A DNA stretch of 64,000 nt from Bacteroidales bacterium (GCA_017991835.1 JAGOPY010000006.1:67637-131636); one strand, 5' to 3'. Counted from the first letter of the stretch, positions 6,231 to 17,153 are shown. The notes: a model not told the origin generated them from the sequence alone. A program made the numbers and translations.

Positions 6231-6701
6231 TTAAGAGAAACCGATGATTATTTTTTTGCCTTTGGTTTGATTCACGAGCTTTTCCAGTGCTCCTCCAGGT
6301 GCAATGCTTGGAATGAAAACCTCGTCGGCAAGATCCATCATCATTCGGTTCCTTACAAGTGCTGTTTCATGTGTCACTCTTGTTATTTCATCACCGAATG
6401 AAGAAATGATCAATAACCGTTCTTCCTCTATTGATTTTTTAATTTTCGGGGTGATTTCACGAAGCATTCCCCTGGCCAGGACAAGTATTACAGGTTGTTT
6501 TCCCTTAATAAGGAAATGAAAGACATCTTTCTCGATCGGGCTGTGAAAGCCCGACATGACGCATTTTCCTGCTTCACGCATAGCTATCGCCCAGTCGTAC
6601 GATTTCAGCACGATCCCGGCCGGAATGCTCCGGCTGCAGATAAAGGCCGTCTTGTATTCTTCAAGCAGTCTGATATTTCCTAGATGTTTTTCGATGTTCA
6701 T
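6231..6701 (-). CDS. DprA/LOG-like Rossmann-fold protein
   Basis: A 156-residue protein resembling the core Rossmann domain of DprA/Smf, the mediator that loads RecA on incoming single-stranded DNA. Visible signs are FICSRSIPAGIVLKSYDWAI (the SR..P start of the nucleotide-binding fold), the GFHSPIEKDVFHFLIKGKQP segment matching the G.SG.a.g.d..ah.. region, VILVLARGM, and late GGALEKLVNQTKGKK. It lacks the N-terminal SAM-like and C-terminal winged-helix domains of full-length DprA, so it is a stand-alone short form and its role in DNA uptake is unproven. The 40-bp element at 6713-6752 lies 11 bases upstream of the start. Confidence 0.7.
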   Translation of the reverse strand: MNIEKHLGNIRLLEEYKTAFICSRSIPAGIVLKSYDWAIAMREAGKCVMSGFHSPIEKDVFHFLIKGKQPVILVLARGMLREITPKIKKSIEEERLLIISSFGDEITRVTHETALVRNRMMMDLADEVFIPSIAPGGALEKLVNQTKGKKIIIGFS

Positions 6702-6712
6702 AACCGGACTTT

Positions 6713-6752
6713 ATTGCTTAATCCGGTTTTTGGGGTAAAAATACCCGGTGGT
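6713..6752 (-). promoter_or_regulatory. Conserved 40-bp upstream element, copy A
   Basis: This stretch matches the segments at 25861-25900 and 49440-49479. The shared parts on the plus strand are TGCTTAATCCGGTTTTT at one end and TACCCGG at the other, with a variable middle. In all three copies it lies immediately upstream of a minus-strand gene (here 11 bases before the start). Read on the minus strand it runs from CCGGGTA through A/T runs to CCGGATTAAGCA. It may hold a promoter or a 5' leader signal. Confidence 0.6.
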
Positions 6753-6803
6753 GGGAAAATAATTTTTATTTAATTCATTAAGAAAAGTGCAACATGATGT
6801 TTT

Positions 6804-7043
6804 TCAGCATTTTGCTAATTGTTCACCTTTCCCTTTTCCATATTCCTCATATACAAGCTTTTCAAAAAATTTCCTGAAGGTTTCTTTATCAATAGGAACG
6901 TCAATTTGCAAAGGATTGCTGAACCAGACTACGTTAGTACTATAAATACTTAAGTATTGAAAATAACTTTCATTGATAATAGGATGCTTGGCATCTATCA
7001 ATTCGAAAATGCTGTGCTGATTATTGTTCATAAGACTATCCAC
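6804..7043 (-). CDS. Small hypothetical protein
   Basis: A 79-residue open frame with a sensible composition (aromatic and charged residues, for example SIFELIDAKHPIINESYFQY and DKETFRKFFEKLVYEEYG). No signal peptide or membrane segment is visible and I recognise no family. It lies between the island's Ntn-hydrolase pair and the core DprA-like gene, in the same direction as the island. It could be the last gene of the island or a remnant. Confidence 0.45.
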   Translation of the reverse strand: MDSLMNNNQHSIFELIDAKHPIINESYFQYLSIYSTNVVWFSNPLQIDVPIDKETFRKFFEKLVYEEYGKGKGEQLAKC

Positions 7044-7364
7044 TACGGTCCTAATTTATAGAGTATATATAGTTTTGAATAAACATTTATTCAGCGGTCT
7101 CAACCAGAGACCGAATGGAAGATAACTTGTATTTTGAATGCTCAAAAAGACTATTCCGGCCATCGGATAACATAAGTCCGATGGCTATTTTTTCATCTGT
7201 TTCGGGCCGTATGACGGCGTATAATATGCTATAGAATGTTTTCATATAATTGATTATGCCTTAAGTAGATATTACAAAGGTCTAGAACCTTAGAGGCAAA
7301 AATCAAGTTGAAAAAAGAGTTGTACGGAAAATATACTCAACTTTATGCGATAAATGACCAGAAG
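7044..7364. other. Intergenic stretch with two hairpins
   Basis: No protein gene is convincing in these 321 bases. It contains a hairpin CGGTCTC-aacca-GAGACCG near 7096-7114 and a strong terminator-like hairpin at 7159-7194 that reads on the plus strand, although every neighbouring gene is on the minus strand. An A/T-rich TATATATAGTTTTG lies upstream at about 7065-7078. Confidence 0.5.
7159..7194 (+). terminator. Plus-strand Rho-independent terminator inside the island
   Basis: A perfect 9-bp stem (GCCATCGGA at 7159-7167 with TCCGATGGC at 7177-7185) is followed by TATTTTTTC on the plus strand. Read on the minus strand it is not followed by a T-run. It therefore suits a plus-strand transcript, although no plus-strand gene is evident nearby. 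Confidence 0.65.
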
Positions 7365-7583
7365 TCACTTTTTCAAGCTGGCAAGATATCTTTCTTTTGA
7401 TGCTTCAAATTGTTTTCTGATGTTCTCCATAAGGCGCTTTGTGACTACTTCAGATATTTCATCAGCCGTCATATCCTCATGGATTTCATCATTATTAACC
7501 TGATCGTTTTTTAATACCGAAAAGATATCCCGCTCTTTGCATAAGCAGTTCTTTTTATCCGGATTAATTGCAAAAATGTTCAT
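7365..7583 (-). CDS. Small companion of the Ntn hydrolase, hypothetical
   Basis: A 72-residue hydrophilic protein beginning 4 bases after the stop of the Ntn-hydrolase gene, so translation of the two is probably coupled. The N-terminal part holds two Cys (NCLCKERD) and the C-terminal half is a likely amphipathic helix (EISEVVTKRLMENIRKQFEA, then SKERYLASLKK). No family is recognised. The tight spacing suggests an obligate partner, for example a substrate, adaptor or inhibitor of the hydrolase; this is inference. Confidence 0.65.
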   Translation of the reverse strand: MNIFAINPDKKNCLCKERDIFSVLKNDQVNNDEIHEDMTADEISEVVTKRLMENIRKQFEASKERYLASLKK

Positions 7584-7587
7584 AGTA

Positions 7588-8883
7588 TCAGGTATTTAGA
7601 TAATTATTCAAGAAATGTTGATTTAATTCTGGTCTGAAATAATGTTTCCTTTTGATCCATATAAATCCATCGCCTTTTGAAATCAGAGCCACATCAACCG
7701 GTCCTCCAACACTTTCTTCTGCAAAAGTAATCCTTCTTTTCAAATAAGTCAAGTAAATTAAACTCTCAGCCATTTCGGCAAGGTCTTCTTTTGACAAACT
7801 ACTGACAGCGCTCATTAGAGGGATAAGAAAATTTGTTCTTTTTATACGATTATTATTCTCCATATAAACTTGAGATAAATCTTCGATGTTCAAATCTCTA
7901 ATTTGAGTAGACAGTAAAGGATTAGCATCGCCCAAGATATTTAATATCTCTTGATTATATTGGTGAAATAAATCCTTGAAATTTTTGAAATAAGACTGTT
8001 CAAGCCTGGGGTCGACACCTTTTAATATCGTATCAATAACATCTGTCTGGGCAAATGGTCTTATGGCCCCTTCCATTTCATTTGAAATTTTCGCCTCCTT
8101 TCTTGTATCAATGAAGTATCTTAATCTGTTTTGGATTGCAAATGAAATATCGACTGGAATTAATTGAGGGTAAATTTCTTCTTCTCCAAATCCAGTAAAA
8201 ACGAGTCCGGTAAAGCCTGTTATTTCCTCCTTCATCCTAAAGTATTGATAAACTATCAATTTAATTCTATTTACAAGGTCGACATGTAAATTAAACCCGT
8301 GTTGAGTAAATTGATGCCGGATAATTGTTTGGATTGGTTCATTGGCAAAAATTTCAAATTCCTCAAATGTATATCCTTCAAGCGCTGGACAAATTTCTTT
8401 ATCATTGATCTGATTCAGAACTTCAATTGATTTTCCATCTAAAAGCCCTATTATTTCATGGATGTGATCTTGATAATTTTCTCTAAGCTGATCATTTCCA
8501 AACAATGATTCATCAAGCAAAGCTTTAATCCAAAATCCGCTAAAACCAAGAAAAAAGTGATTTGAAATTGTATCATCAGTGAAGTAATTCTTTTCACCAA
8601 GGAATCGAATAAAATCTTCAACATATAGCTGCATAGTAGGAAAGGACTGCTCTCCTAATTGCTTTCGATATACTTTAATAATTGTTTCCCAAGGAGTGGC
8701 CATAAAAGAAGCCGAATTGTATATCATTACCCCCACAGGGTGGTATTTTGATAACGTAAATATCTTATTTGCACGGTTGAAAATCTTTCGACCGTTTTCA
8801 CCATCTATGGTTACAGCACTATCGGCCGCTAAAGCTACCGCGTGTTTATTTAAAATCCCAACAACTGCAGTCATATTGAACAC
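7588..8883 (-). CDS. Proteasome beta/HslV-like Ntn hydrolase, long form
   Basis: The 431-residue product opens MFNMTAVVGILNKHAVALAA, followed by DSAVT. This is the N-terminal strand-turn-strand of proteasome-type Ntn hydrolases. Taking Thr5 as Thr1 of the mature enzyme, Asp lies at mature position 17 as in proteasome beta subunits and HslV, and the later NKIFTLSKYHPVGVMIYNSA places a Lys (mature about 36) where the family has Lys33, with a short insertion. If translation begins at the second ATG (8874), removal of Met alone would expose the Thr nucleophile. The remaining 350 or so residues are largely alpha-helical-looking and far exceed the roughly 180-residue beta subunit, so it is not HslV itself; no HslU or other unfoldase is adjacent. 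It forms a tight pair with the 72-residue gene downstream. Confidence 0.75.
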   Translation of the reverse strand: MFNMTAVVGILNKHAVALAADSAVTIDGENGRKIFNRANKIFTLSKYHPVGVMIYNSASFMATPWETIIKVYRKQLGEQSFPTMQLYVEDFIRFLGEKNYFTDDTISNHFFLGFSGFWIKALLDESLFGNDQLRENYQDHIHEIIGLLDGKSIEVLNQINDKEICPALEGYTFEEFEIFANEPIQTIIRHQFTQHGFNLHVDLVNRIKLIVYQYFRMKEEITGFTGLVFTGFGEEEIYPQLIPVDISFAIQNRLRYFIDTRKEAKISNEMEGAIRPFAQTDVIDTILKGVDPRLEQSYFKNFKDLFHQYNQEILNILGDANPLLSTQIRDLNIEDLSQVYMENNNRIKRTNFLIPLMSAVSSLSKEDLAEMAESLIYLTYLKRRITFAEESVGGPVDVALISKGDGFIWIKRKHYFRPELNQHFLNNYLNT

Positions 8884-8977
8884 ATTTTTAAATTTCCCAT
8901 ATTCAGGTTTAACTCCACAAAAATTACGCCTAATTATTAATATTCAGATAAATACACTAATTTTGCTTTTTAGCAGC

Positions 8978-8998
8978 ACCGGAGATAGCATCTCCGGT
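8978..8998. repeat. Intergenic palindrome
   Basis: ACCGGAGA (8978-8985) pairs perfectly with TCTCCGGT (8991-8998) around a 5-base loop, in the 196-base gap upstream of the Ntn hydrolase gene. No T-run follows on the minus strand, so it is probably not a terminator for the preceding gene. It may be a REP-type palindrome. Confidence 0.5.
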
Positions 8999-9079
8999 CC
9001 GACGCTACGGGAAACTGAGGCGTTTCTGTTTATTTTTCATTATTCCTCTGCCTCAATTAACAGGTTTTAAATCATTCTA

Positions 9080-9520
9080 TTAAGGATACTTTTTTTCGTT
9101 TGTTTTTGATTTATTTGATCCGGAGATCGCAGACCATACTCGTGATGAATTTACGAAATCAATGATGCTGTTTCGCACTTCCCGGATCGTCATTTTTGAA
9201 CTGATTGAAAGCTTTAGTTTCTGAGCTACTTGTGATAATTGATCTTTAGTTAGATGTTTCAATTGATTACTGGCTGATGCTGGTTTGGATATAAGGTCAT
9301 TAATAAACTTCTGATCAATATTAAGTTCTTTATTTTGAGATTTGCGATCTGTGAAAGGAGCTGTAATGGAAACTTGAATACGTCCCCCAAATTTTTGAAG
9401 CTTCTCTAAATCAGAGGTTCTAAAAGTTTCTTTAACGAATACTTCAAGATTCTTAGGAAGTTTTTCTGCTGGCTTTAAAATTATGTCATGCTTTGGCATA
9501 GTCTTTAATTCTATTTTCAA
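9080..9520 (-). CDS. Small partner of the ParA-like ATPase, SAP/HeH-like C-terminus
   Basis: A 146-residue protein whose start overlaps the end of the ParA-like gene by 35 bases, indicating translational coupling. The N-terminal half is unremarkable beta-like sequence (IILKPAEKLPKNLEVFVKET). The C-terminal part (about 85-135) reads LKHLTKDQLSQVAQKLKL, then a Lys/Thr-rich turn and REVRNSIIDFV, a helix-extended-helix pattern like SAP/HeH DNA-binding domains. It may therefore be the DNA- or partner-binding component of the ATPase, comparable in position to ParB. An alternative start at 9499 is possible. Confidence 0.65.
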   Translation of the reverse strand: MKIELKTMPKHDIILKPAEKLPKNLEVFVKETFRTSDLEKLQKFGGRIQVSITAPFTDRKSQNKELNIDQKFINDLISKPASASNQLKHLTKDQLSQVAQKLKLSISSKMTIREVRNSIIDFVNSSRVWSAISGSNKSKTNEKKYP

Positions 9521-10451
9521 TTCGATTCGTAAAATTCATCATAATATCGGCCACTGATTTTTGCTCACTACTCTGGTGACGGAAATCGAACCAGGCCATT
9601 TTATCGGCTCCCTGGCTTAGGAATCTTGAAATTACATCAAGCCTTGGGATACGCTCTATGATTGGATGTGTTTCAATTATCTTCCTTTCTACAGAGGTAA
9701 GTTCCTTTTTTATCGAATCATATAATTCTTCTGTGGCTCTTTGCTGATTTTGAGTGCCATACTCATAACCCCCTGCCCGATTAATCCCATTCAGGACACA
9801 ACCTAAAAATTTCGGCCTCGATTTTTCATCAATTTCTTTAACCCATCTGAGCAATCTTGGCATGCCGAAAATGGATATTTTATCAGGTATCGTAACAGCG
9901 AGATAATAAGAACAGGCTCTAAGCATTGCCTGGGTCAGATACATTTTATTAGGTGGGCAATCTACAAGAATATAATCAAAATCGGTGAATTCATTAAGCA
10001 TATTGGTACAATAACCGAATAGCATAGTTTCAGCACTTGGATTTTCAACTAATTCCCTGGTCACTATAATATCTAACTCATCTACATCAAACGAACCTTT
10101 GATGATTTTTAGTGTATCGGGAGCGTAGGCATCAGGAACATCATCTATGTATTGCCGGAACTTAACTTTTGTTATTGTTGACCACCTTTTTGGTTTTACC
10201 AGATGATAAATTGTGAAATCTGTTTTATTCACCACCTCTGGATCATATCCTACGGCAAGAGACAGGCTACACTGGGGATCGATATCAAAGAGTAGCACTT
10301 TGTATCCTCTATGAGCCAGATAGTAGCCCAACAGTGTAGTTACCGTTGTTTTACCAACTCCCCCTTTGTAATTTGCAATGCAAATCGATTTGGGGTGTTT
10401 CTCGATTTTGAACTGCTCAACTTTTCTTTTTACATCATCTGGTATGTCCAT
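9486..10451 (-). CDS. ParA/Soj-family ATPase
   Basis: A 321-residue deviant Walker A ATPase. The P-loop KGGVGKTT sits at residues 29-36 with the signature Lys, the switch I/Walker A' region reads YKVLLFDIDPQCSLSLAVGY, and the Walker B-like strand is FDYILVDCPPN. The family dimerises on ATP and binds DNA non-specifically. Such ATPases serve plasmid or chromosome partition, but stand-alone copies also occur in conflict systems and integrative elements. Here it follows the helicase-methylase pair by 62 bases and overlaps a small DNA-binding-like partner. No replication initiator or centromere-like repeat array is visible, so a plasmid partition role is not supported. Confidence 0.9.
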   Translation of the reverse strand: MDIPDDVKRKVEQFKIEKHPKSICIANYKGGVGKTTVTTLLGYYLAHRGYKVLLFDIDPQCSLSLAVGYDPEVVNKTDFTIYHLVKPKRWSTITKVKFRQYIDDVPDAYAPDTLKIIKGSFDVDELDIIVTRELVENPSAETMLFGYCTNMLNEFTDFDYILVDCPPNKMYLTQAMLRACSYYLAVTIPDKISIFGMPRLLRWVKEIDEKSRPKFLGCVLNGINRAGGYEYGTQNQQRATEELYDSIKKELTSVERKIIETHPIIERIPRLDVISRFLSQGADKMAWFDFRHQSSEQKSVADIMMNFTNRIENRIKDYAKA

Positions 10452-10513
10452 TTTATTTTCTTGTTTTGTTTATAATTAATGTTTTAATAATTTAATCTTC
10501 AGAACGTTATAAT

Positions 10514-13500
10514 TCATTCCTCTATTTCCTCTCCGCTCCCGATCCCCATCCGGTACTTGATGTCGTAATTGATGATGAAATCCAGCTCCTCCTCCGTGAA
10601 ACCGTAATGAACCGCTAATAACTGGTCTATCTGGTCGATGATGGGCTTGGATTTTTTTACATAATATTCTCGATAGTTGATAGTGCCAGTAGATTTATAG
10701 GAAGCAGTTTTTAAAATTGAATTAACCTCTAGATCTTCCTGATATAAATAAAAAACGTCATCTAACTTGCTGTCAGTTAGTTCATTTATTGGAAAATTAT
10801 AGATAATATGCTTTGTAAAATTATGCGCATCACTTGTTACAACATAGTACCAATAAAACAATGAAGAGGACATCGCAGATCCAATTAAGGTCCGATTTTT
10901 ACCTTGTAATATACAAAGTTCTTTTTCGCCAGTTGATTTTTGAGCATTTTCACCCTCAAAATATGTAGGGGTAATAAGAACCTTTGCCCAATATCTAAAT
11001 CCATAAGAGTAGAACAATTTAAAATTTGTCACGGAATCAGAAATAAAACTGGAAATTCTTTTTTTTACCGTGAATAACTTATTGTAAATATCCAACTCAG
11101 TACTATTTGACGTCTTTGGAATAAGATTATATGGTTGTGTAATCAGTCTAAGATCAGTATAATAAAGACTTTGGAAAAGAGAATTTCTTTGGGAAGTCAA
11201 GAATTTTATCAGTCTAGTTGATTTAAAATTACTCTTTTGCTCGGCTTTCTTTTTAAGAATGATTATAGAAAGCCTAATATCCGCTCCCTCAAACAGTTTA
11301 GCTGGCCTACACTCAAAGCTTGAAAAATAAGAATCACAACTTGACTTTAACATCTTAATCGCACTTTCCATTCTCGGTGTGCTAATTAAAGCCAAGGGCA
11401 AAATGAAACCAAGATATCCTTCAGCTTTTTTTAAGCTCAATGATCTTTCGAGACAATAAGCGTGTAGATTTCCACATTCAATTGTCTTATAATCTTTTAG
11501 TTCATAAGTCTTGTTGACTTCAGAATATTCCACATATGGCGGGTTCCCAATGATCACAGCAAAACCTTTATTTTCTTCTATTATTTCATAATATTCAGCA
11601 AACCAGTGAAATGGCTGGTAGGATTTAAGCCACTCCTCATATTTGGTCCCGGAATACTGCATATGAAGCAATTCGTTCAACTGTTTATTGAGTTCCTTTA
11701 GTCTTTTATTATGTTCTTCCTTTGCCTCTTTAAATCCCTCGTAATCATCACCCTGGTTCAACTGTATTTCTTTATACCGTTTAAAGGCTTTTGCAACTAC
11801 CTCGCACTTTTCCTCGATCTGCGGTCTGACAATAGCGCCATCAAAAGTGTAATCCAGCCCTTTTTTCAATTCATCGCCGGTTGCAAACCCCACAAGCGTA
11901 TTGCCGCACCGGATATTAAAATCAACGTCCGGCAGCGGTTCCAGGCCGAGATTGTCTTTCTTGTAATCGGGATCCACGGTTGCCATCAGCTTCAGGAAAA
12001 GACGCAGCTTGGCAATTTCCACCGCTTCATTCATAATATCCACTCCATACAGGTTATTGAGAATGATGCTTTTATAGATGAAACAATCAAGGTTTGGGTG
12101 TTCCGGGCGGTTTACCTGTTCCAGTTCTCTGACAAAGACAGAATACTTTGTTCCGCCCTCATCCTCAACAAAGCTTTCCATCCGGTCGATGCACTTCCGG
12201 TAAAGCGTTTCCAGGATATTCATAGCCGCGAACAGGAACGCGCCCGAACCGCATGTGGGATCGAGAATGGTCACTCCTTTAAGCGCTTCGTAGAAATGAT
12301 GGACCAAAGCCGGGTCAGTCGTATTTTCCAGCACATCTTGGGTAAACTGTTTGATATCCAGGTTGTAAGTGATAAAGTCATTGATCTCTTTCACTTTCCC
12401 CGTTTCGATCTTTCCCTTCACCACCTGGTATCGGTTTCTCCGTTCAATCACCTCCCGGTATATTTCTGTCGGTAAGGCAATTTTAGCAGGCGCTGGCTGG
12501 TTCCATTCTCTCCGCAATTCATAAAGATGTGGCGAAGTGGTATCCTCAACTATTTTCTTACCCAGATCTTCATTAAAACCAACTTTTACTTCCGACGGGA
12601 GGTCATCGAAAAGATCGCCATTTTTGGGAAGCCCGTGTTTTACGGCACCATAAATGTATTTATCCCCGCTTTCTTTCAGCATATTCCAGGTTTCCGCACC
12701 TTCTTTCATCGCGGCGGGATATTTCCGCTTCACTTCGTCGAAAAGGTAAGGTATGATGCAGTTTTTGGAGATGTAATCGGTAATGTCTTCCCGGGTGTAG
12801 TAAGCGCCCATCTGTGCCCGGTCATTGATATACTTTTCGAAAATATAACCAATTACGTCTGGGTTGATATCACGCCCGGTTGCCGTTGGACTGTCATCAA
12901 GGTGCCAGTTATACTCGTCAAAGAAATTGAAGATTTTCTCAAAGGCTTCGTCTTTAACCTCAATATTCGTATAGCTTTTCTCCAGTTCGTGAACATCGAA
13001 CAGTCCACCATTCAGGTAAGGAACTCGCCCAAGATCAGGTAACAAGCTGTCAGTATGAGGAGAACCCAGGCCTTTGTGAAACAGAATGAGCAGGAAACTC
13101 TTGTAAAATGAATAAAACCGGTCTTTCCCTTGCTTGTCCCGTGTTTCTTTCAGTTTGTTCCTGAGATAATTGATATCGTCGTTCAGGAATCCTTTTTTTT
13201 GGATAAAATAGCAGAACATCAGCCGGTTAAGCATCAGGGAAGCGTACCATTCTCGGTCACCCATAACTGTAATGCCTTCAATAAATCCAAGGAAACGCTT
13301 ATGTTCATTTTTGAATTTATCGTAAAACTGTTTGGTGACTTTTTCGGCGTTGGCGGTAAAATTCTGGCGCAAGCGATGCGTAACGTCAACGATCGTGAGG
13401 CCTTCTTCTTCAGAAAGGGTGAAGAATGCGCCTTTCATCCGCTGGTATAGCAATTCGGGATCCTGGTGCGATTTCCAGTTGGTTTGCCGGAACTGGTTGG

Positions 13501-13822
13501 GCTTGTTAGGCTGCCGGTCAATCATTTGCCAGGTCTGTTCTGATCTGTTCTTATCAATAAATATCAGGAGGCTCTCGTGATAGTTTTTAGAAATTTCAGT
13601 TTGAACCTTTCTTCTGATAGAATAAGAGGGGATTTTCCCGTTTTCTGAGGCCTGACAAACAATAATGCGAAATCCTTCTTTTTGTGCAATGGAATGATAA
13701 TTGAAAGTTTCCTCTTCAATTTTTATCGATCTGGCCTCATTCAGGTAATTCCAGCCCAGTTCATTGAATAATCTCGTAAAATCAAAATCCCTGATGCGCT
13801 GATTAAAAACTTGTTTTTCCAT
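10514..13822 (-). CDS. Eco57I-type (type IIG-like) adenine methylase
   Basis: A 1102-residue protein with N6-adenine methyltransferase motifs: motif I DPTCGSGAFLFAA near residue 521 for S-adenosylmethionine, YGVDIMNEAVEIAKLRLFLK (acidic ribose-binding loop) and motif IV NPPYVEY near residue 759. The C-terminal 250 residues probably hold the target recognition domain. The N-terminal 190 residues resemble the front part of Eco57I-like enzymes, but I do not see a clear PD-(D/E)xK nuclease triad there, so cleavage may depend on the partner helicase or not occur. Its start overlaps the end of the PLD-SNF2 helicase gene by 20 bases, so the two are translated as a unit. Helicase-methylase pairs of this kind occur in restriction-like defence loci related to BREX and DISARM. 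Confidence 0.9.
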   Translation of the reverse strand: MEKQVFNQRIRDFDFTRLFNELGWNYLNEARSIKIEEETFNYHSIAQKEGFRIIVCQASENGKIPSYSIRRKVQTEISKNYHESLLIFIDKNRSEQTWQMIDRQPNKPNQFRQTNWKSHQDPELLYQRMKGAFFTLSEEEGLTIVDVTHRLRQNFTANAEKVTKQFYDKFKNEHKRFLGFIEGITVMGDREWYASLMLNRLMFCYFIQKKGFLNDDINYLRNKLKETRDKQGKDRFYSFYKSFLLILFHKGLGSPHTDSLLPDLGRVPYLNGGLFDVHELEKSYTNIEVKDEAFEKIFNFFDEYNWHLDDSPTATGRDINPDVIGYIFEKYINDRAQMGAYYTREDITDYISKNCIIPYLFDEVKRKYPAAMKEGAETWNMLKESGDKYIYGAVKHGLPKNGDLFDDLPSEVKVGFNEDLGKKIVEDTTSPHLYELRREWNQPAPAKIALPTEIYREVIERRNRYQVVKGKIETGKVKEINDFITYNLDIKQFTQDVLENTTDPALVHHFYEALKGVTILDPTCGSGAFLFAAMNILETLYRKCIDRMESFVEDEGGTKYSVFVRELEQVNRPEHPNLDCFIYKSIILNNLYGVDIMNEAVEIAKLRLFLKLMATVDPDYKKDNLGLEPLPDVDFNIRCGNTLVGFATGDELKKGLDYTFDGAIVRPQIEEKCEVVAKAFKRYKEIQLNQGDDYEGFKEAKEEHNKRLKELNKQLNELLHMQYSGTKYEEWLKSYQPFHWFAEYYEIIEENKGFAVIIGNPPYVEYSEVNKTYELKDYKTIECGNLHAYCLERSLSLKKAEGYLGFILPLALISTPRMESAIKMLKSSCDSYFSSFECRPAKLFEGADIRLSIIILKKKAEQKSNFKSTRLIKFLTSQRNSLFQSLYYTDLRLITQPYNLIPKTSNSTELDIYNKLFTVKKRISSFISDSVTNFKLFYSYGFRYWAKVLITPTYFEGENAQKSTGEKELCILQGKNRTLIGSAMSSSLFYWYYVVTSDAHNFTKHIIYNFPINELTDSKLDDVFYLYQEDLEVNSILKTASYKSTGTINYREYYVKKSKPIIDQIDQLLAVHYGFTEEELDFIINYDIKYRMGIGSGEEIEE

Positions 13823-16800
13823 GTAAATCAGTTTGATTTTTTATTCCCATCGAGCAAATGATCTGAGGCGCTGAAAGTGTTTCGCCAGATTCTTCTTCTA
13901 CCAGGCAAAGTCTTCCTTCGTTCCTGAGTTCAACAACGATGGCAGCGAGCTGGTCATCCGTGACCCCGATACGTAAACGCCTGTTTAATATATCTTTAGC
14001 ACTTTCCCGTAATGGGTATTTATAAATATCGCCGATGGCTTTTTTCAATGAATCCGTGTCGAACAACGTGTTTTTAAATTCTTCAATATATCGTGTAAGA
14101 ATCATATACACTTTATAGCGCGCTCCCGATTTTTTACCTAATTGGCCTCCGGTAAGTTGTTCATCTTTAGAAGAATATTCAAGGGATAATTTAACCAGGT
14201 CATGATGCTGGTCCATCTTTTCCAGTTCAGGGGTATCATAATCGCAAGCAATAGCTTTGAGTATACGGCTTTGACTTTTAGAAATCACCCGTTGATCCAT
14301 ACCAATCCAGGTCAATATATCAACATCGGAAGCAGTTTTGTGATAAGTCACAACGCCTTCGCCTTCAACCATCTGCTTTGGTTTGGGCATCGTACTGTAA
14401 ATCACATTTGGCAAGGATGGTATGATTTTTTTCAATTCAGGCCGGGCTTTTATGGCCTGGTTCCAGATTTCAAAAGCGGTTGAGGTCAGGTCAACTTCGG
14501 TGTCTTCTTCTTCATCGAGGATACCGGCTTTTTCGTTGTACAGGTCTCTGATATTGACCGGATCGCCATCAAAGAATACTTCATCGGCGCCCACATATTC
14601 TGCATTTTCCCTGATACGCCGTGATAGACGGTCGCGCAGCCGGATGATATTATTCAGCCCGTCAGCCGGGAGAAAAGAATAGCAAAGGATTTCGGGATGA
14701 TGCTGGCCGATACGGTCAACACGGCCGGCGCGCTGGATCAATCGGATCAGTGCCCAGGGAAGATCGAAATTTACGATGACGTGGGCGTCCTGCAGATTCT
14801 GGCCTTCACTTAAGACATCCGTCGAAAGCATGATCCTGATATCATCTGTTCCGGGTGTTTTCTTGTTGCTGACCGGACTGAAGCGATGGGCAAACGAGGT
14901 GGGATTTTCAATGTTTCCGGTTACAGCTTCCAAACGGTCAATTTTTCGCTTGTTCAGTTCTTCCTTGAGGTAATCAACGGTGTCGGCAAATTGCGAGAAG
15001 ATCAGGATTTTATCTTTTGGATGTTTCGTTTTGCAAAGATGTTCCAGGGATTTTAATTTTTTATCGGCTTTAGGATCCCAATATTTGGCAATATTCAAGA
15101 CCTCAAGCAGAATCTTGCAATCATGCTGAAGACTGATTATCAGATCATGCGTGAAAAACTCAGGATCAATCCAGGTAAGCTTTTTATCATGCTTATTTCT
15201 TTCATAGGCCGTTGCAGCATCTTCCATAAATTTTCCGACATCCGTTTTGATTTGCCTGATTCCCTGATCCAGCGTGTCCGCATCATTTTCTTCGAGGAAT
15301 TCATCGATCGATTCATTCTCTTGTCTTCCGATCGGCAATTTCAGCCCGTTTTTGATAGCATGGATATAAACGTAATTCCGCATCAGGTGGCGGGAGACTG
15401 ATATAATAAATGAAAAGCCGCAGCTTTCCAGTCTTTTAAACAAATTCGTCCTGCAAAATCCCATCAATCGTTTACCTGCACGGGAAAGATTAGCTAGGAT
15501 CAGTTTATCATCATTTCCGGCTGAATCTTCCTTTGCCGGGTCGATATAATTTGCCAGCCCATAGCGGGCAAGTTGCAATGAATTGATCAGGAGAACTACA
15601 TTTTCAGAATAGAGCTTCGCGTAAATATCCACATCATCCAGAGGATCAAAGTCATACTCAATCTTTTTGGGTATTCTGTCAGGAAAATAAAAGCGGCTGC
15701 CGTCCGAGAAGGTCAGGAAATATTGATTTCTTCCGTCGTCGAAAGTCGCGTAGTTTTCTTTTATAAAAGTCCTGGTTCGCCTGACCATGTATAGTTTAAG
15801 CAAGGTTTGCCAGTCTTCAGGATAATCACTTTTCTCGAACGCCAGCAGCGTATTGGGTTGATATTGATAGGTCGAAACGAATTCTGTTGCCCCACCCTGT
15901 AGTTCATTAATAAATCGTTCAGGAGAAACTCCCAGATCCTGCTCTTCCGGAATAAATAGTCTTAATTGGTTTGAAATATCAAAATAAATCTTATTATAAG
16001 GTGTGGCTGTAAGAAGAATGACTTTGCATTCATTTCGTTCAAGATAATCTTTAATGATAGAATAACGCTTTCCATCCCGGTTTCTCAGGTTGTGGCTTTC
16101 ATCGATGATGACGACCCGGTATCTTCTTTCATTCAAAAACTTCTCATCAATCATTGAAATGCTTTTTACCTTACCCCGAATCTGGTACCGGTGAAAATAA
16201 TCCTCCCACATTTCGGTAATGTTTTTCGGACAGATCACCAGGGTTTCAAGGTAAAAAGTCTCCTCGAAGACTTTTGTTAAGGCAGTAGCAGTTAATGTTT
16301 TACCGAGGCCAACCACATCACCGATCAGCACTCCGCCGCGTTTATCAAGATGTCGTGCAGCAATTAGCACAGCGCTTTGTTGGAACGGCAGAAGATCATT
16401 GCCAAAAATTTTGGGAATGAGAAAGTTATTCAAGCCAAGCTGTGCTTCCTGGGAGAGATGCCAGGCGATTTTCAGGTAAATAAAATATGGCTTTATGAGC
16501 TTATCACCGGCCCAACTTTCATCAATGATCGCAGCGAGTTCATCAGAAATATCGATACAATACTGATCAATCCACCTGTCTTCAAACCATTTAGTCAATT
16601 TGTTGGCAGCATCCTGTTCCAGCACATCCAGGTTCAATTCCCCCTGTTTCTCAAGTCCAGCCAGGGTGAGGTTGCTGCTTCCGACATATCCTACGGCTGG
16701 GGTGATCGGATCTTCCCTGAAAATCAGGTAAAGTTTTGCATGCAAAGAATGCCTGAGAAATAGTTTGACTATGACTTTCCTTTGTTTTAATTGGAGCGAC

Positions 16801-17153
16801 AATTTTCGAAGGCTTTCTTCATCATTCTGAGTAGGTAATCCAAACATCAATTGACTGCGGAATTCCAGTGCGATTTTCTTTTTTAAGGCCAGGGCTGTAG
16901 CATTGTCCATTAATCCCGGTTCTTTGGTGGCCAGATGTTCCCGTAAAATCTCTGAAGAAGGTTTCTGCATCCCGATAAGTAATTTGCAACATTCGTTCTC
17001 TTTTCCCTGGTATTGATCAATCAAATCAGCCAGTTTATCCCATCCCCGGAGATTAAAATAACCTACACAAAAATCAGCACGAAAAGATGTTCTGATGGTT
17101 TGTTTAAGGCCTTCAATCAATATGTTCTCGATATTATCGTAGATCTTTGGCAT
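13803..17153 (-). CDS. PLD-domain SNF2-family helicase
   Basis: An 1116-residue fusion. Residues about 1-215 form a phospholipase D-like domain with one HxK motif (HAKLYLIF near residue 136) followed by GYVGSSNLTLAG, typical of PLD nucleases. Then comes an SNF2/RapA-type helicase: Walker A GDVVGLGKT near residue 278, DESH box VVIIDESHNLRNRDG near 349, LLTATPYNK near 380, and a C-terminal RecA domain with ILIFSQFADTVDYLKEEL, STDVLSEGQNLQDAH and motif VI LIQRAGRVDRIGQ near 805. It would translocate on double-stranded DNA, with PLD as a potential nuclease. It is the first gene of the island and divergent from dnaE, with 179 bases between. Confidence 0.9.
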   Translation of the reverse strand: MPKIYDNIENILIEGLKQTIRTSFRADFCVGYFNLRGWDKLADLIDQYQGKENECCKLLIGMQKPSSEILREHLATKEPGLMDNATALALKKKIALEFRSQLMFGLPTQNDEESLRKLSLQLKQRKVIVKLFLRHSLHAKLYLIFREDPITPAVGYVGSSNLTLAGLEKQGELNLDVLEQDAANKLTKWFEDRWIDQYCIDISDELAAIIDESWAGDKLIKPYFIYLKIAWHLSQEAQLGLNNFLIPKIFGNDLLPFQQSAVLIAARHLDKRGGVLIGDVVGLGKTLTATALTKVFEETFYLETLVICPKNITEMWEDYFHRYQIRGKVKSISMIDEKFLNERRYRVVIIDESHNLRNRDGKRYSIIKDYLERNECKVILLTATPYNKIYFDISNQLRLFIPEEQDLGVSPERFINELQGGATEFVSTYQYQPNTLLAFEKSDYPEDWQTLLKLYMVRRTRTFIKENYATFDDGRNQYFLTFSDGSRFYFPDRIPKKIEYDFDPLDDVDIYAKLYSENVVLLINSLQLARYGLANYIDPAKEDSAGNDDKLILANLSRAGKRLMGFCRTNLFKRLESCGFSFIISVSRHLMRNYVYIHAIKNGLKLPIGRQENESIDEFLEENDADTLDQGIRQIKTDVGKFMEDAATAYERNKHDKKLTWIDPEFFTHDLIISLQHDCKILLEVLNIAKYWDPKADKKLKSLEHLCKTKHPKDKILIFSQFADTVDYLKEELNKRKIDRLEAVTGNIENPTSFAHRFSPVSNKKTPGTDDIRIMLSTDVLSEGQNLQDAHVIVNFDLPWALIRLIQRAGRVDRIGQHHPEILCYSFLPADGLNNIIRLRDRLSRRIRENAEYVGADEVFFDGDPVNIRDLYNEKAGILDEEEDTEVDLTSTAFEIWNQAIKARPELKKIIPSLPNVIYSTMPKPKQMVEGEGVVTYHKTASDVDILTWIGMDQRVISKSQSRILKAIACDYDTPELEKMDQHHDLVKLSLEYSSKDEQLTGGQLGKKSGARYKVYMILTRYIEEFKNTLFDTDSLKKAIGDIYKYPLRESAKDILNRRLRIGVTDDQLAAIVVELRNEGRLCLVEEESGETLSAPQIICSMGIKNQTDLHGKTSF

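What the first reader, a model, noticed from the sequence alone, without database searches (positions are those of the whole stretch)
6804..17153. Candidate undescribed defence island: PLD-SNF2 helicase, methylase, ParA-like ATPase with DNA-binding-like partner, and a proteasome-like hydrolase pair
Seen: seven consecutive minus-strand genes between core genes. There are overlaps of 20 bases (helicase-methylase) and 35 bases (ParA and partner) and a 4-base gap (hydrolase and 72-residue gene), and the base composition is visibly more AT-rich than the flanks. Known: SNF2 helicases with PLD domains and Eco57I-like methylases are components of BREX- and DISARM-related anti-phage loci. Inference: the ParA pair and the proteasome-type hydrolase pair are extra modules of the same system, giving DNA recognition, modification and perhaps a proteolytic effector. 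I know of no described system with this complete set. The 196-base gap before the hydrolase pair means the last module could be an independent gene pair.
Basis: partly seen in the sequence, partly recalled or inferred. Interest (0 to 1): 0.78.

Follow-up and report, generated by a model that had tools for sequence, protein, structure and literature searches.

The report
Restriction-like operon with swappable cargo slot
The genes form a bacterial DNA-defence operon whose constant parts are a DNA-cutting motor, a DNA-marking enzyme and, just outside the marked stretch, a small DprA-like protein, while the genes between them (here a ParA-like pair and a proteasome-like pair) are interchangeable passengers that differ from genome to genome.

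Summary
The gene order, overlaps and AT-rich composition are as reported. The PLD-SNF2 helicase and Eco57I/PglX-like methylase are a widespread pair: 74 of 80 helicase loci from many phyla also contain the methylase. Its family lies in the same cluster in 33 of those 80 loci (28 of 41 with at least 4 kb downstream). In 396 genomes of the window's phylum, all 10 carrying a close relative of it also carry the helicase-methylase pair or a remnant. Between methylase and DprA-like gene lies a variable slot, holding DarTG, YhcG, RhuM, Fic, PIN or OLD-like genes elsewhere. Here it holds the ParA pair and the hydrolase pair, found in none of the 80 loci. The hydrolase has a proteasome fold with conserved Thr1/Asp17/Lys and, with a small downstream gene, recurs independently in prophages and satellite phages. 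So: not one seven-gene system, but an R-M-like core plus window-specific cargo. I found no named system with this helicase-methylase-DprA core in PADLOC or the papers searched. The mechanism is inferred; nothing was tested in cells.

The parts
13803..17153 (-). Core gene 1: N-terminal PLD (HKD-type) nuclease domain fused to SNF2/SF2 translocase, 1116 aa
   Evidence: Pfam PLDc_2, SNF2-rel_dom, Helicase_C; H138-K140, GSSN and E172, Walker A GDVVGLGKT, DESH and QRAGRVDRIGQ invariant or nearly so across 10 sequences; relatives 43-60% identical in the phylum and 80 kept loci in many phyla
10514..13822 (-). Core gene 2: N6-adenine DNA methyltransferase, Eco57I/PglX/type IIG-like, 1102 aa, overlaps gene 1 by 20 bases
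   Evidence: Pfam Eco57I and MmeI_Mtase; PADLOC PDLC03628 REase_MTase_IIG, 903 bits, full length; DPTCGSGAFLF and NPPY motifs conserved; same cluster in 74 of 80 loci
9486..10451 (-). Cargo: ParA-type P-loop ATPase (KGGVGKTT), 321 aa, no N-terminal HTH
   Evidence: Pfam AAA_31 105 bits; no other match at E<=1e-20 in 396 phylum genomes, none in viral contigs, distant RepA/ParA only in plasmids and phages
9080..9520 (-). Cargo: small partner of the ParA gene, 146 aa (139 aa from ATG 9499); DNA-binding role only weakly suggested
   Evidence: No Pfam family; weak PHROG matches to Arc-like repressor and endonuclease VII at E about 0.006-0.008; no relative in 98 related genomes, plasmids or viral contigs
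7588..8874 (-). Cargo: proteasome-like Ntn hydrolase (Thr1, Asp17, Lys), 428 aa, with large helical insertions
   Evidence: phrog_5990 360 bits; M1, D18, K37 invariant and T2 replaced once, by Ser, in 22 sequences; AlphaFold mean pLDDT 84; all 50 listed Foldseek PDB hits are proteasome structures, best E 6.8e-5, TMt mostly 0.5-0.6
7365..7583 (-). Cargo: 72-aa charged protein coupled to the hydrolase gene
   Evidence: 4-base spacing; 29 of 32 distinct hydrolase homologues have a 51-79 aa ORF starting within -35 to +40 of their end, control 87 of 224 ORFs; C-terminal match DEISEVV..RL...I.KQ with L148
6804..7043 (-). Possible cargo ORF of 79 aa, uncertain
   Evidence: GTG start, GC 0.33, no credible family match
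6231..6701 (-). Core gene 3, outside the reported interval: DprA/SLOG-like Rossmann-fold protein, 156 aa
   Evidence: Pfam DNA_processg_A E 1.7e-6, PADLOC PsyrA E 1.9e-12, weak PDB profile hits to DprA and ShosA; 33 of 80 loci; all 10 phylum genomes with a close relative carry the core or a remnant

Best explanation
The locus is an R-M-like anti-invader operon with three constant genes: a PLD-nuclease/SNF2 translocase, an N6-adenine methyltransferase, and a DprA/SLOG-like regulator. Between the methylase and the regulator is a slot into which unrelated toxin, TA or effector-like modules are inserted. Proposed working: the methylase marks self DNA; the motor-nuclease is engaged at unmarked invader DNA, translocates, and the PLD domains cut (inferred from domain content and intact motifs). 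The DprA-like protein restrains or licenses the motor-nuclease or the cargo, as DprA-like antitoxins do in ShosTA, PsyrTA (syrTA) and RqlHI (inferred). The cargo acts as a backup effector when the core is evaded (inferred). In this window the cargo is two modules: an orphan ParA pair of unknown role, and a phage/satellite-type pair made of a proteasome-like hydrolase and a small coupled protein. Shown: the architecture, the conservation, the variability of the slot and the independence of the hydrolase pair. Not shown: any activity.
For: Methylase in the cluster in 74 of 80 helicase loci; DprA-like gene in 33 of 80, directly after the methylase with no cargo in L040, L049, L051, L061, L097, L105, L106. 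DprA-like gene in 28 of 41 loci with at least 4 kb downstream of the methylase. In 396 phylum genomes, 10 have a close DprA-like relative and 9 of these have the full-length helicase (Fisher p = 9e-16); the tenth, G015, has a methylase remnant ending in the DprA-like gene. Slot contents elsewhere: DarT/macro, KilA-N, RhuM, YhcG/DUF1016, AAA_21, Fic, PIN, putAbiC, DUF3800, several matching PADLOC candidates and DarG. Cargo GC 0.33-0.38 against 0.40-0.43 for the core genes on both sides. Hydrolase relatives in 51 viral contigs, 13 phage records and 10 plasmids. DprA homologues as antitoxins: PMC9122126.
Against: No phage challenge, methylome or enzyme data. 13 of 41 sufficiently long loci lack a detectable DprA-like gene, so it is not obligatory or is too diverged there. 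Loci are helicase-selected, and at least one genome was sampled by both collections (L027 and L090). In one locus (L047) the DprA-like gene precedes the helicase. The cargo role as backup effector rests on analogy.
Confidence: 0.6

Rival explanations
1. A single integrated seven-gene defence system in which the ParA pair and proteasome-like pair are dedicated subunits.
For: Same strand, tight spacing, one island between rpsP and dnaE.
Against: Cargo genes absent from all 80 helicase loci; close ParA relative in no other of 396 genomes; the five other genomes with the hydrolase lack the helicase; composition step between core and cargo.
Confidence: 0.05
2. The helicase-methylase pair works alone as an R-M-like system; the DprA-like gene is just a frequent defence-island neighbour or another cargo item.
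For: DprA-like gene not detected in 13 of 41 long loci; DprA-like proteins occur in TA and defence loci.
Against: Overlapping or adjacent methylase and DprA-like genes in seven cargo-free loci; all 10 close relatives in the phylum sample belong to genomes with the core or its remnant.
Confidence: 0.25
3. The ParA pair, and perhaps the hydrolase pair too, are remnants of an integrated plasmid or phage (partition genes plus a moron) without a defence role in this locus.
For: ParA matches plasmid and phage partition families; the hydrolase is typical of prophages and satellites; cargo is the most AT-rich part.
Against: No other phage or plasmid gene between 6.2 and 17.2 kb among the ORFs scanned; no partition-site-like repeat array near ParA; the genes lie on the operon strand in a slot that carries effector-like cargo in relatives.
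Confidence: 0.3

Closest known systems
Type IIG restriction-modification enzymes (PADLOC REase_MTase_IIG)
   Same: Methylase matches one PADLOC IIG model over its full length.
   Different: No conserved nuclease motif or significant nuclease fold in its N-terminal 200 residues; it comes with a separate PLD-SNF2 partner, which IIG enzymes do not need (general knowledge).
DUF499-centred BREX-related (BR)/Hma systems, Type-2 BR with HKD-Snf2 helicase
   Same: HKD-Snf2 helicase plus N6-methylase acting as an R-M-like pair (PMC12839542).
   Different: No DUF499 ATPase among the window proteins; a DprA-like gene instead.
CxC ABC-ATPase/PbeABCD systems
   Same: HKD nuclease fused to SF2 helicase, often with methylases and auxiliary genes (PMC10853773).
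   Different: No ABC ATPase or DndE gene among the window proteins scanned; different methylase class (cytosine methylases there).
DISARM class 1 (DrmD, DrmMI)
   Same: SNF2-like helicase and adenine methylase give partial DrmD and DrmMI matches.
   Different: Far below the DrmD cut-offs; no DrmA, DrmB or DrmC gene in the locus.
ShosTA, PsyrTA and RqlHI
   Same: DprA-like partner gene (PADLOC PsyrA match; weak ShosA PDB match; PMC9122126).
   Different: The partner here is a PLD-SNF2/methylase pair rather than a phosphoribosyltransferase or RecQ-like helicase (general knowledge for these systems); the protein is only a 156-aa Rossmann domain.
Proteasome beta subunit/HslV
   Same: N-terminal Thr, Asp17, Lys and fold.
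   Different: About twice as long, large helical insertions, small coupled gene, phage-borne; no unfoldase gene recognised next to it.

Membership tests
Type IIG R-M | m6A methyltransferase with Eco57I/MmeI-like domain | tested here: met
Type IIG R-M | Endonuclease domain in the same polypeptide | tested here: inconclusive
   No conserved catalytic motif recognised in the N-terminal 200 residues of 26 sequences; model pLDDT 85 but no PDB fold match at E<=0.001, only weak SPARDA resemblance
DISARM | DrmA, DrmB and DrmC core | tested here: not met
   No such gene among the eight proteins 6231-17153; only partial helicase cross-matches
BREX | PglZ phosphatase and BrxC ATPase with PglX | tested here: not met
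   Not among the eight proteins; PglX models match far below cut-off
DUF499 BR/Hma systems | DUF499 AAA+ ATPase | tested here: not met
   No DUF499 among the eight proteins
DprA/SLOG superfamily | DprA-type Rossmann domain | tested here: met
   Pfam DNA_processg_A E 1.7e-6 (27.8 bits, just under the gathering score of 29.6); PADLOC PsyrA E 1.9e-12
DprA/SLOG superfamily | Ability to bind ssDNA or nucleotide | not testable with these tools
   Conserved G, C-S, GFHS..E, R and R-N positions only
Proteasome-like Ntn hydrolases | N-terminal Thr/Ser nucleophile, Asp17 and Lys33 equivalents, proteasome-type fold | tested here: met
Proteasome-like Ntn hydrolases | Ring assembly and peptidase activity | not testable with these tools
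   Not modelled; needs protein work
ParA partition system | ParA ATPase with adjacent centromere-binding protein and parS repeats | tested here: inconclusive
   ParA ATPase met; partner unassigned; no repeat array at 8800-10600
Defence system | Protection from phage | not testable with these tools
   Needs experiment

The most novel reading that the evidence does not exclude
A widespread, so far unnamed R-M-like defence family in which a DprA-like switch controls a PLD-SNF2 restriction motor and also an interchangeable effector carried in the same operon, so that loss or inhibition of the core releases the cargo; and a second, independent phage-borne defence module made of a proteasome-like hydrolase with a small cognate protein.
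Probability: 0.3. Interest if true: 0.8.

Novelty: new variant of a known kind. Interest (0 to 1): 0.52.

Why it matters
It separates a constant, multi-phylum three-gene core from its passengers and so gives a clean object for testing: does a DprA-like protein control an R-M-type motor as DprA-like antitoxins control toxins? The slot is also a natural trap for undescribed effectors, since what sits there in relatives is rich in toxin and abortive-infection families. The proteasome-like pair, carried by satellites and prophages and without a PADLOC match, is a plausible unrecognised anti-phage or phage-competition module.

Tried and rejected
Looked for the full set elsewhere with ParA, its partner and the hydrolase: only the hydrolase has close enough relatives, unlinked to the core. 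Tested whether the methylase carries its own nuclease by modelling the N-terminal 200 residues: no significant fold match. Looked for partition-type repeats or island-bounding repeats: none convincing. Tried to find the empty site in the same-genus genome G396 and in G397: rpsP and dnaE lie on different contigs or with different neighbours, so no empty site could be read. Literature searches for a DprA/SLOG + SNF2 + methylase system or a proteasome-like phage-defence pair gave none in the held library. A mid-scoring DprA-like group (G166, G388, G014) proved unlinked to the core and was set aside.

Full report
Observation. Two starts should be moved: the hydrolase to ATG 8874 and, probably, the ParA partner to ATG 9499. 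The 79-aa ORF is doubtful. The island is AT-rich, but in two steps: cargo genes 0.33-0.38 GC, helicase, methylase and the DprA-like gene 0.40-0.43, flanking rpsP and dnaE 0.48-0.50.

Core. The 1116-aa protein is a PLD nuclease domain fused to an SNF2 motor; PLD H/K and GSSN motifs and the main motor motifs are conserved among ten sequences. The 1102-aa protein is an Eco57I/PglX-like adenine methylase with intact motifs I and IV, and matches one PADLOC type IIG model over its full length. A methylase of this family lies in the cluster in 74 of the 80; most of the rest are contig ends.

Third core gene. A 156-aa DprA/SLOG-like protein at 6231-6701, outside the reported interval, has homologues in the same cluster in 33 of the 80 loci and in 28 of the 41 that have at least 4 kb of sequence beyond the methylase. 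In seven loci it follows the methylase directly, several times with a 4-base overlap. In the phylum sample, ten genomes carry a close relative (E below 1e-55); nine have the full-length helicase, in two of them on another contig with the DprA-like gene near a contig end, and the tenth has a methylase remnant running into the DprA-like gene (Fisher p = 9e-16, taking 11 helicase genomes with more than 800 bits). L027 and L090 come from the same genome, so the two collections overlap slightly.

Cargo slot. Between methylase and DprA-like gene, or between helicase and methylase, relatives carry unrelated genes: DarT and macro-domain (DarG) pairs, KilA-N, RhuM, YhcG/DUF1016 nucleases, AbiEii/OLD-type ATPases, Fic, PIN, IrrE-like, putAbiC, DUF3800 (54 ORFs scanned). 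In the window the slot holds the ParA pair and the hydrolase pair. Neither occurs in any of the 80 loci. A close ParA relative was found in no other genome of 396 and its partner in none of 98 related genomes.

Hydrolase pair. The 428-aa protein belongs to phrog_5990. Met1, Asp18 and Lys37 are invariant and residue 2 is Thr, once Ser, in 22 sequences, matching the Thr1/Asp17/Lys33 set of proteasome-type Ntn hydrolases. An AlphaFold model (mean pLDDT 84) matches only proteasome structures among the 50 listed PDB hits. Homologues occur in 51 viral contigs, in streptococcal satellite phages at the end of the element, in prophages and in plasmids. 29 of 32 distinct homologues are followed by a 51-79 aa ORF starting within -35 to +40 bases, against 87 of 224 control ORFs.

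Mechanism. From domain content and intact motifs I infer an R-M-like cycle: self-marking by the methylase, translocation and cutting of unmarked DNA by the PLD-SNF2 protein. DprA homologues act as antitoxins in ShosTA, syrTA/PsyrTA and RqlHI (PMC9122126), so restraint or licensing of the motor-nuclease or cargo is the most economical role for the third gene. Cargo as backup effector follows the pattern described for BREX and its relatives (PMC12839542, abstract). None of these steps is shown here.

Known systems. The locus fails the component tests for DISARM, BREX and DUF499 (BR/Hma) systems. The IIG label is only half met, since no nuclease domain could be shown in the methylase. HKD-helicase/methylase pairs are described in other settings, so the kind is known; the combination with a DprA-like gene and a cargo slot was not found in PADLOC 2.0 or in the open-access papers searched, which does not prove that it is undescribed.

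Noticed in passing
L199, L200, L201, L202 and L148-L198: Proteasome-like hydrolase plus small charged protein as cargo of satellite phages, prophages and a plasmid with phage genes, with no PADLOC match; a candidate defence or competition module of its own.
   Followed up: partly
L204 (G015 contig 24), 17-4453: Truncated methylase (784 aa) running into an intact DprA-like gene, beside a 512-aa ORF that may be a transposase: a decaying copy of the core that kept the DprA-like gene.
   Followed up: partly
L047, 1160-4974: DprA-like gene placed 15 bases before the helicase instead of after the methylase: alternative gene order.
   Followed up: no
L215 (G109 contig 123), 5739-8693: A more distant DprA-like gene directly after a helicase that looks RecQ-like by eye, as in RqlHI/PsyrTA; fits DprA-helicase pairing in general.
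   Followed up: no
L052, L055, L065, L114, L118 after the methylase: Recurrent AAA ATPase gene beside the methylase, in L055, L065 and L114 followed by a roughly 200-aa protein (MK.G...ECG..G), often where the DprA-like gene is not detected; may be an alternative module.
   Followed up: no
L049, L051, L031 between helicase and methylase: Genes inserted between the two core genes (KilA-N domain matches in the cargo set): a second cargo position.
   Followed up: partly
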